Source: Gammaproteobacteria bacterium | Lineage (GTDB): Bacteria > Pseudomonadota > Gammaproteobacteria > SZUA-152 | Length of the DNA: 64,000 nucleotides | Direction of reading: 5' to 3' | Assembly: GCA_021647705.1 (NCBI GenBank) | Contig: JAKIUF010000013.1 | Location: 1 to 64,000, forward strand | Part shown: one piece after another, positions 19,786-22,206 of the stretch | How positions within the stretch are numbered: position 1 is the first letter of the stretch | Layout: every line of letters starts with the position of its first letter | The notes under the pieces: model-generated | Databases searched by the model: none | What the model saw: only the letters and a program-made list of their open reading frames with translations | Told to the model about the DNA's origin: nothing | Program-made: the position numbers and the translations under genes

Positions 19786-20484
19786 ATGTTGGTGGATAAA
19801 AAAGTACAATCAGTTATCTCTTTGTTGAATAATATTCAACGGGACTATGCACCGGCTGCACTGGCCAGCAGTTTCAGTGCTGAGGATATGTTATTACTGG
19901 ACCTCATTAGCAAGCATGCACCGGAAATCAATGTGTTTACTTTGGACACCGGACGCTTACCCGCAGAAACGTATGACCTGATGCAAAAAACCCACGAAAA
20001 ATATGGTCCGGTGGTAGAGGTCTATGCGCCGGATTGTTCTGTGCTTGCCGAGTATGTACAGGCGCAAGGCCCCAATGCTTTTTACAATAGTGTAGAACAA
20101 CGCAAGCAATGTTGCGCCATGCGGAAACTGGTGCCATTGAAACGGGCACTGTCCACACGTGAAGCCTGGATTACCGGGTTACGTAAAGAGCAATCGGTCA
20201 CCCGTACCGACTTGGAACACATGGAATGGGATGAAGCTCATGGGATTCCCAAATTCAATCCTCTGCTGGATTGGAGCGAGAAGGAAGTATGGGCCTACAT
20301 TCATGAAAATGATGTGCCTTTCAACGAATTGCATACGAAGGGATATCCGAGTATTGGTTGCGCGCCATGCACGCGGGCGATTGCTGAAAAAGAGGATATT
20401 CGTGCCGGGCGTTGGTGGTGGGAAAATCCGGAAAGTAAAGAGTGTGGTTTGCACGTACGCTCAAAAGAAACCGTAAGCGCATAA
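19786..20484 (+). CDS. cysH: adenylyl-sulfate (APS) reductase, CysH family with 4Fe-4S motif
   Basis: Reduces activated sulfate to sulfite. The 232-residue protein has the SxSAEDM phosphate-binding start, TLDTGRLPAETYDL, and the catalytic C-terminal ECGLH. It also has Cys109-Cys110 (QCCAMRK) and Cys192-x2-Cys195 (GCAPCTR). This is the four-cysteine 4Fe-4S set that marks APS-type reductases, whereas E. coli-type PAPS reductases lack it. The ribosome-binding site AAGGAGAAAGG precedes the ATG. It completes the cluster with the sulfite reductase. A degenerate copy of its 3' end lies 1.2 kb downstream. Confidence 0.93.
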   Translation: MLVDKKVQSVISLLNNIQRDYAPAALASSFSAEDMLLLDLISKHAPEINVFTLDTGRLPAETYDLMQKTHEKYGPVVEVYAPDCSVLAEYVQAQGPNAFYNSVEQRKQCCAMRKLVPLKRALSTREAWITGLRKEQSVTRTDLEHMEWDEAHGIPKFNPLLDWSEKEVWAYIHENDVPFNELHTKGYPSIGCAPCTRAIAEKEDIRAGRWWWENPESKECGLHVRSKETVSA

Positions 20485-20540
20485 CAACAAACGAATGCAG
20501 TGCGTCGCTTCATGTTGATGAAGTGACGTATTTCTTTTGT
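20461..20540 (+). repeat. direct repeat A: cysH 3' end plus terminator hairpin
   Basis: This segment includes the last codons of cysH, the stop, and the hairpin GTCGCTTCATGTTGATGAAGTGAC followed by a T-rich run (the likely cysH terminator). It aligns with 21661-21741 with one gap and about 15 differences in 80 positions, mostly transitions. The two copies bracket the toxin-antitoxin remnants. Confidence 0.8.
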
Positions 20541-20602
20541 GACTCCTGTTTTTCTTCTCTGGTTTTCAGGAGTGAAAAACAAAGAAAGGCTGGGAGCGTT
20601 CC

Positions 20603-20920
20603 TTATTCCTGCGCCAAAATAATCTGAATACAATCTTCAAGTGGTTGCAGTTGCTTTTCGATGACGTTGGCAACTGTCAACGAATCGATGTTGCCCAGAT
20701 AATTATGCACAAGAATATTGCGAAAGCCGCTGATTTCACGCCAGGGGATATCAGGAAATGCAGCTTTTTTGTCATCGGGTAATAGTTGGGTCGCTTCGGA
20801 TAAGGTCTGCAAATTGCGTAAAGCAGCATCATAAAGCACCTCATCCTGAGTAAGGAATGGGCTCGCAATAACTTCCCGGTTTTGCATCTCATCTTCAGCC
20901 CGTCTTCGTCCGTTCTTCAA
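20603..20920 (-). pseudogene. hepT: C-terminal part of hepT (HEPN toxin), cut off by a MITE
   Basis: These 105 codons hold the C-terminal two thirds of a HepT/DUF86 HEPN protein: AALRNLQTLSEATQLLP, DIPWREISGFRN and the catalytic motif RNILVHNY (R-x4-H-x-Y), intact. In complete MntA-HepT systems this motif forms the RNase site and its Tyr is AMPylated by MntA. The N-terminal 33 codons lie at 21017-21115, in the same frame but separated by a 157-bp element with two stop codons. The ATG at 20920 is inside the element, so a truncated protein could in principle still be made. Probably non-functional. Confidence 0.8.
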
Positions 20921-21020
20921 TCACAAAACCTCGAAATAGAACGACTATTCCTACGGTTTTGCTCAATCAGAACAAACGAATACGAACTAAATCTGAGCGC
21001 TAAACCAGGAAGTTATTGCG
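20864..21020. mobile_element. R4 MITE, copy 1, inserted in hepT
   Basis: The ends are inverted copies: left CGCAATAACTTCCCGGTTT and right AAACCAGGAAGTTATTGCG, differing at one position. The 157-bp body encodes no transposase and fits a MITE. A related copy lies at 46368-46473 and shares CCGTTCTTCAATCACAAAA and CTCGAAATAGAACGACTAT. I cannot fix the target duplication because CGC/GCG at the ends is itself part of the palindrome. Confidence 0.88.
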
Positions 21021-21115
21021 TTCTCATTCCTAAGGTCACCACGCAACTGAATGCGCCGAATTTTTGCGATGGCATCAAGGATATGCAGCGCATAGGGTTG
21101 CCAGAGTTTGCTCAT
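20987..21115 (-). pseudogene. hepT: N-terminal fragment of hepT
   Basis: The ATG at 21115 overlaps the mntA stop codon as ATGA, the normal junction of mntA-hepT operons. It opens with MSKLWQPYALHILDAIAKI, a typical HepT first helix, reaches residue 33, enters the MITE and stops at the TAG at 20987-20989. The frame matches that of the downstream fragment, so the original gene was continuous before the insertion. Confidence 0.82.
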
Positions 21116-21441
21116 AACTCCACGGCCTCTTTTAACACCTGTTCGCGGATATGCCGGTTAAGTTCATGTTCCGGTACCAGCTCCACTTTGCGATGGAGCA
21201 GGCCCGTCAAACTCTCGGCCAACGGCAAACGTTGAGTGAACAAATCATAACCACGTGGTAAATCCACCAGGAAATCGATGTCACTATCAGGCTGTTCTTC
21301 ACGCCGGGCGACGGAACCGAACACGCGAATGCGACGAGCACCAAATTTACCGACTAATGTCTCAATAATCACTTTTTTCTGTCGTAACTCGTCTAATAAC
21401 ATCATTAGCTCCCATCGGTAATCGGGTGACTCTATTTTCAT
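21112..21441 (-). CDS. mntA: MntA-type nucleotidyltransferase antitoxin
   Basis: A 109-residue minimal nucleotidyltransferase. The signature GS-x10-DxD is intact: FGSVARRE...DSDIDFLVDL. In characterised MntA-HepT pairs this enzyme AMPylates the HEPN toxin on the Tyr of RxxxxHxY and so neutralises it. Its stop overlaps the hepT start. The partner toxin is split by a MITE, so the antitoxin may now be an orphan. An inner ATG at 21405 is an alternative start. It is divergent from the vapC remnant. Confidence 0.88.
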   Translation of the reverse strand: MKIESPDYRWELMMLLDELRQKKVIIETLVGKFGARRIRVFGSVARREEQPDSDIDFLVDLPRGYDLFTQRLPLAESLTGLLHRKVELVPEHELNRHIREQVLKEAVEL

Positions 21442-21458
21442 ACTATCATAGTAGTATA

Positions 21459-21587
21459 GGGCAACCTATTGGCCCATATGACATGATGGTTGCTGGCCAT
21501 GCAAGAGCCATAGGTTTAATGTTGGAGGCCAGTAACATGAAAGAGTTTGAACACGTGCCAGGGCTTCGGGTTGAGAGCTGGATGTAA
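21459..21587 (+). pseudogene. vapC: 3' remnant of a vapC (PIN-domain toxin) gene
   Basis: In frame with the TAA at 21585 the sequence reads QPIGPYDMMVAGHARAIGL, then EFEHVPGLRVESWM. This matches the C-terminal quarter of VapC toxins (xGPYDxxIAaHARslGLtLVTnNxrEFerVPGLrvEnW), including the PIN-domain Asp in PYD. The expected LVTNN block has decayed to MLEASN. Upstream the frame runs into the mntA promoter region and no more of the PIN domain is visible, so this is a truncated relic. Confidence 0.8.
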
Positions 21588-21660
21588 AATAAGGGGAGGC
21601 CATAATTTAAACAGAATAATTGTGTTCTATCCCTCCTGTTATTTCCTATGCACACACACA

Positions 21661-21741
21661 TCCAAAAGAGACCGCAAGTGCATAACAACAAACGAACGTA
21701 ATATGTCGCTTCATGTTTATGAAGCGACATATTTTTGTGTG
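21661..21741 (+). repeat. direct repeat B: degenerate copy of the cysH 3' end and terminator
   Basis: It aligns with 20461-20540, including the bases of the last cysH codons (here frame-shifted by one base) and the hairpin GTCGCTTCATGTTTATGAAGCGAC followed by ATATTTTT. This hairpin also lies just beyond the dut stop and can serve as the dut terminator on the other strand. Confidence 0.75.
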
Positions 21742-21750
21742 GTTATGGTT

Positions 21751-22206
21751 TTAATGTTGTCCTGTATGTCCAAATCCCCCTTCACCACGATCACTTTCAT
21801 TAAAGCTGTCAACAATCTCAAAGGTGGCTTGCACCACAGGTACAAATACCATCTGTGCGATACGTTCACCTGGGTTGATCGTGAAGGTTTTGTTGCCACG
21901 GTTCCAACAGGATACAAACAACTGTCCCTGATAGTCTGAATCAATAAGCCCGGTGAGGTTGCCTAACACAATGCCGTGTTTATGGCCCAGACCCGAGCGA
22001 GGCAGCAACACCGCAGCCAGTTTTGGATCGCCAATGTGAATGGCAATGCCGGTGGGAATCAAATGAGTTTCACCGGGTTTTATTTCAAGGGCTTCATCAA
22101 TGCAGGCGCGCAGGTCCATTCCGGCAGAGCCGTCGGTGGCGTAATGTGGCAGTTCGATTTCTTTGCCGATGCGTGGGTCAAGAATTTGTAGTTGAATTTG
22201 AGTCAT
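21751..22206 (-). CDS. dut: dUTP diphosphatase
   Basis: Hydrolyses dUTP to dUMP, giving dTTP precursor and keeping uracil out of DNA. The 151-residue length is standard for the homotrimeric enzyme. Conserved motifs in order are GSAGMDLRA (motif 1), [13 protein letters not shown] (2), [12 protein letters not shown] (3), [13 protein letters not shown] (4) and the C-terminal arm [11 protein letters not shown] (5). It stands alone and is read away from the M16/GNAT operon. Confidence 0.97.

What the first reader, a model, noticed from the sequence alone, without database searches (positions are those of the whole stretch)
21459..21587. Relic of a vapC toxin next to mntA-hepT
About 40 codons read as the C-terminal end of a VapC (GPYDMMVAGHARAIGL ... 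EFEHVPGLRVESWM). Nothing upstream in the frame resembles the rest of the PIN domain. Two unrelated toxin-antitoxin systems, both broken, in 1.1 kb suggest a hot spot where such loci arrive and decay.
Basis: partly seen in the sequence, partly recalled or inferred. Interest (0 to 1): 0.6.

Follow-up and report, generated by a model that had tools for sequence, protein, structure and literature searches.

The report
Decayed toxin-antitoxin insert beside cysH
The 43-codon stretch is a dead leftover of a bacterial growth-inhibiting toxin gene (vapC), and it sits in a 1.1-kb piece of imported DNA whose second toxin gene has also been cut by a small transposon while its antidote gene stays intact; an ordinary but clearly readable example of toxin-antitoxin genes arriving and decaying.

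Summary
Window 21452-21587 (+) encodes the last ~43 residues of a tRNA(fMet)-type VapC (PDB phmmer E=1.7e-12, aligned to VapC residues 91-131 of 132). No PIN head and no vapB lie nearby. Its substitution pattern is that of neutral decay. The genome has an intact copy of the same subfamily elsewhere (C15). (1) hepT is split by a 177-bp MITE with TAA duplications (20854-21030), but the antitoxin gene mntA is intact. (2) The whole TA stretch lies between two copies of a 72-bp segment, the cysH 3' end plus its terminator (20462-20533 and 21663-21734). A sister genome has a single copy there and no insert. That copy matches the right-hand repeat (70/72), whereas the window's own cysH tail is divergent and closer to a third species. 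The simplest reading is one import that brought a foreign cysH tail and both TA pieces together, then decay; repeated arrivals are not needed. Other genomes have no TA at this site, so a TA hot spot is not shown. In relatives hepT is often broken while mntA stays open, including one independent cut by an unrelated MITE. Ordinary; new member of a known kind.

The parts
19786..20484 (+). cysH (phosphoadenylyl-sulfate reductase), gene upstream of the insert; its body is 95.4% identical to the sister genome G007
20462..20533 (+). left copy of the 72-bp direct repeat: last codons of cysH plus hairpin terminator; divergent from the sister genome (11/72 differences), closer to G006 (6/72)
20603..20850 (-). 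hepT, 3' part (toxin residues ~29 to end, with the RX4HXY motif RNILVHNY)
20851..20853 (.). TAA target-site duplication, left
   Evidence: (sequence)
20854..21030 (.). 177-bp MITE with ~32-bp inverted ends that splits hepT between codons 28 and 29; more than 20 full or partial relatives elsewhere in the genome
21031..21033 (.). TAA target-site duplication, right
   Evidence: (sequence)
21034..21115 (-). hepT, 5' part (residues 1 to ~28); ATG overlaps the mntA stop codon by 4 bases
21112..21402 (-). mntA, intact antitoxin (adenylyltransferase family, GSX10DXD present); start inferred from relatives, ATG possible at 21405
21452..21587 (+). relic: C-terminal ~43 codons of a tRNA(fMet)-type vapC
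21663..21734 (+). right copy of the 72-bp repeat (displaced original end of cysH and its terminator); 70/72 identical to the sister genome's single copy
21751..22206 (-). dut (dUTPase), next gene; directly follows cysH in the sister genome

Best explanation
The 43 codons are the dead 3' end of a vapC toxin gene. They are part of one 1.1-kb insert, a hepT-mntA type VII TA pair plus the vapC tail, that entered at the 3' end of cysH together with a foreign copy of the last ~72 bp of cysH and its terminator. Recombination in that short shared stretch (single crossover with a circular or transformed DNA, or an equivalent insertion) gave cysH the foreign tail and pushed the original tail to the far side. 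The vapC head and vapB were lost at some point, and the remaining tail drifts neutrally. Later a 177-bp MITE inserted into hepT and disarmed it, which left mntA as an orphan antitoxin that nothing forces out. Shown: the homology, the missing head and vapB, the repeat and the empty site in the sister genome, the MITE with its duplication, the open mntA. Inferred: the mechanism of entry, the order of events, whether mntA is expressed.
For: VapC homology. Neutral pattern of change in the tail versus intact copies. No head or vapB nearby. 72-bp direct repeat at the two ends of the TA stretch, found only twice in the genome. Sister genome G007 with a single copy and cysH directly followed by dut. 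Right copy 70/72 and left copy 61/72 identical to G007. The jump in difference begins at the repeat: cysH body 31/676 versus tail 11/72, Fisher p=0.001. MITE with inverted ends, TAA duplications and many genomic relatives. Each hepT piece aligns to adjoining parts of hepT in the GTDB relative L099. In relatives mntA is open in 80/82 loci and hepT in only 45/82. Among 9 loci found through hepT (window included), hepT is broken in 4 and mntA in none.
Against: No donor with cysH tail + hepT-mntA + vapC in this order was found; no cysH or dut lies near any of 82 mntA relatives. Loss of an old insert in G007 by recombination between the repeats would give the same empty site. The tail comparison rests on 72 bases. 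The hepT/mntA counts are partly shaped by having searched with MntA, and 'broken' includes frameshifts that may be assembly errors in MAGs.
Confidence: 0.7

Rival explanations
1. Hot spot: two independent arrivals of TA loci at the cysH-dut gap, each followed by decay.
For: The gap is variable in the genus: other genes sit there in G011 and G005, and other neighbours follow cysH in G004 and G008.
Against: Both TA pieces lie within one pair of repeats; no other genome examined has a TA gene at this place.
Confidence: 0.15
2. The insert is older than the split from G007. It duplicated the cysH tail in place and was later lost in G007 by recombination between the repeats.
For: Direct repeats readily delete what lies between them; G007 has exactly one copy.
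Against: More distant G002 also has a single copy without an insert. The left copy is closer to G006 than to the right copy (66/72 versus 61/72), which in-place duplication does not predict.
Confidence: 0.12
3. The 43-codon frame is a functional small peptide, for example one that still binds a VapB or a VapC.
For: The frame is open to its stop; similar orphan VapC tails occur in other genomes of the family.
Against: Changes fall as expected without selection (7:4, neutral fraction 0.71, p=0.52) and hit positions fixed in intact copies (VTNN to EASN); no vapB was found nearby.
Confidence: 0.03

Closest known systems
VapC of the tRNA(fMet)-specific group (NCBIfam PRK13725; PDB 6ifc, 3tnd, 5ecw)
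   Same: Residues ~90-132 align without a gap, including GPYD and EF.PGLR.E.W
   Different: Two thirds of the protein, with the first acidic residues of the active site, and the vapB partner are missing; the conserved TNN is changed
HepT/MntA type VII toxin-antitoxin system (PMC7641770)
   Same: mntA-hepT with overlapping genes; GSX10DXD in MntA and RX4HXY in the HepT fragment
   Different: hepT is split by a MITE, so no toxin is expected
Small TAA-duplicating MITEs of the same genome
   Same: Inverted ends, TAA duplications, size of about 180 bp
   Different: Only one case seen inside hepT here; the unrelated genome G298 has a different MITE at nearly the same place in hepT

Membership tests
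VapC (PIN-domain toxin of type II TA) | Sequence homology to VapC | tested here: met
   E=1.7e-12 to PDB VapC, 2e-13 to PRK13725
VapC (PIN-domain toxin of type II TA) | Complete PIN domain with N-terminal acidic residues | tested here: not met
   Only the last ~43 of ~133 residues; no head in any frame nearby
VapC (PIN-domain toxin of type II TA) | Adjacent vapB antitoxin | tested here: not met
   tblastn of the genome's own VapB-like protein: nothing in 17-25 kb
HepT/MntA type VII TA | MntA with GSX10DXD | tested here: met
   GSVARREEQPDSDID; NCBIfam MntA 3.3e-11 but below its cut-off
HepT/MntA type VII TA | Intact HepT with RX4HXY | tested here: not met
   Motif RNILVHNY present, but the gene is split by a 177-bp insert
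HepT/MntA type VII TA | MntA adenylylates HepT | not testable with these tools
   Needs a biochemical assay
MITE | Short, inverted ends, target duplication, repeated in the genome, no transposase | tested here: met
   177 bp, ~32-bp ends, TAA/TAA, 20-odd related places
Integron gene cassette | attC site and integrase | tested here: not met
   The flanking repeat is the cysH end and terminator, present as cysH end in the empty sister genome; no integrase in the insert

The most novel reading that the evidence does not exclude
The end of cysH serves as an attachment site for small mobile TA-bearing units that restore the gene with their own tail, and the repeatedly found orphan VapC tails (breaks near residues 80-94 in six of seven family cases) reflect a recurrent recombination point in the vapC 3' end.
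Probability: 0.07. Interest if true: 0.5.

Novelty: new member of a known kind. Interest (0 to 1): 0.25.

Why it matters
It is a readable example of how TA loci enter and decay: an insert with its empty site in a sister species, a toxin cut by a transposon while the antitoxin stays open, and a second toxin reduced to its last codons. The toxin-first pattern across relatives (mntA open in 80/82 loci, hepT in 45/82, two independent MITE hits in hepT) fits the idea that a cell can lose the toxin first but not the antitoxin. It changes no known mechanism.

Tried and rejected
Integron cassette reading of the 72-bp repeats: rejected, because the repeat is the native cysH end and terminator in a genome without the insert. 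The repeat as a genome-wide element: rejected, only two copies. RNA family in the region: none at gathering scores. Promoter for mntA: only one weak site, on the other strand, fewer than in shuffles. MntA relatives in viral contigs: none. In plasmids: only below 60% identity. Clustering of orphan-tail breakpoints as a general rule: suggestive but post hoc; several class-wide short frames turned out to be frameshifts, internal deletions or contig ends. A donor with cysH beside hepT-mntA: none among 82 loci.

Full report
Observation. The (+) frame ending at 21587 carries the C-terminal end of a VapC of the tRNA(fMet)-specific group. PDB sequences align from VapC residue 90-91 to 131 of 132 with E=1.7e-12, and NCBIfam PRK13725 with 2e-13. 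The piece is too short for Pfam's PIN model. DNA homology to intact vapC genes begins at about 21452-21454 and ends at the stop codon. The intact relatives include one in the same genome, at contig C15, 71-72% identical in protein, with a vapB-like frame in front of it. No VapC head lies in any frame of 20545-21700, and no vapB in 17-25 kb.

It is a dead remnant. At codons where four intact copies agree in amino acid, the window has 7 amino-acid changes and 4 unique silent changes. Chance alone would give a nonsynonymous fraction of 0.71 (p=0.52 for the observed 0.64). The intact copies themselves have 0-3 and 3-15. The conserved VTNN has become EASN.

Surroundings. Upstream, on the other strand, lie mntA and hepT, with a 4-base overlap of stop and start. 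mntA is open and has GSX10DXD, the motif that transfers AMP to HepT in the type VII system (PMC7641770). hepT is split. Its first 28 residues lie at 21034-21115 and the rest at 20603-20850, and each piece aligns on its own to the intact hepT of the GTDB relative L099. Between them is a 177-bp element with inverted ends (pattern match at both ends) and TAA on either side. Relatives of the element occur at more than 20 places in the genome, some with similar ends and TAA flanks. It is a MITE.

The insert. The whole stretch from hepT to the vapC tail lies between two copies of a 72-bp segment at 20462-20533 and 21663-21734, 61/72 identical. The segment is the last codons of cysH with its hairpin terminator and occurs only at these two places in the genome. 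In the sister genome G007 (about 95% identical around here), cysH is followed by a single copy and then dut; G002 has the same arrangement. G007's copy is 70/72 identical to the window's right copy but only 61/72 to the left one; the left one is closer to G006 (66/72). The cysH body of the window differs from G007 at 31 of 676 sites, and the left tail at 11 of 72 (Fisher p=0.001); the difference begins at the start of the repeat. So the right copy is most likely the original end of cysH, and the left copy came with the insert. One event at one point explains this: a DNA with a short cysH tail recombined there. The mechanism (single crossover or another kind of insertion) is inferred. The test rests on 72 bases.

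Hot spot or not. Both TA pieces are inside the same insert, so one arrival suffices. In other genomes of the genus the gap between cysH and dut is empty (G007, G002), holds a cyclophilin-like gene and another frame (G011) or a DUF1439 gene (G005), or cysH has other neighbours (G004, G008). None has a TA gene there. TA genes do cluster with hepT-mntA in the family: vapBC lies next to it in G032 and a ParE gene in G034. The L099 neighbourhood also shows a frame resembling the start of a tyrosine integrase (by eye).

Order of decay. Among 82 mntA loci, mntA is open in 80, while hepT is open in 45, disrupted in 22 and not found in 15. The set was found through MntA, which favours open mntA. In the small reverse set of 9 loci found through HepT (window included), mntA is open in all and hepT broken in 4. 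In one of them (G298) hepT is cut by an unrelated MITE six codons from the site used here. This fits the expectation that the toxin is lost first.

Orphan VapC tails. Other genomes of the family also hold vapC tails without heads (G002:C97, G034:C114, G017:C96, G009:C172, G005:C60), as does the own genome at C32, and six of the seven, window included, break near residues 80-94. In 274 genomes of the class, 14 of 142 tail matches but only 1 of 67 head matches lie in short frames (counted by hand from the tables); several of the former are frameshifts or contig ends. This was noticed after the fact and is not used as evidence. It does show that vapC remnants are common here and not special to this locus.

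Verdict. Confirmed as a vapC relic, part of one decayed TA insert with an intact orphan mntA. Ordinary in kind, unusually readable in history.

Noticed in passing
window 20462-20533 and 21663-21734: 72-bp direct repeat made of the cysH end and terminator brackets the TA insert; the left copy looks foreign, the right one original.
   Followed up: yes
window 20854-21030: 177-bp MITE with TAA duplications inside hepT, with over 20 related places in the genome.
   Followed up: yes
L219 (G298:C1), about 1765-1928: Unrelated MITE-like insert with long inverted ends inside another hepT, at codons 22/23, with mntA intact.
   Followed up: partly
L078, L085, L179, L182, L196, L184: Orphan VapC C-terminal tails without heads in other genomes of the family and elsewhere in the own genome, breaks mostly near residues 80-94.
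   Followed up: partly
82 mntA loci (L063, L064, L099-L178): mntA nearly always open while neighbouring hepT is disrupted or not found in 37; partly an effect of searching with MntA.
   Followed up: partly
L099 3849-4067 and 2407-2988: Next to the closest mntA-hepT relative: a frame like the start of a tyrosine integrase, and a frame that by eye resembles a SocA/Panacea-type antitoxin.
   Followed up: no
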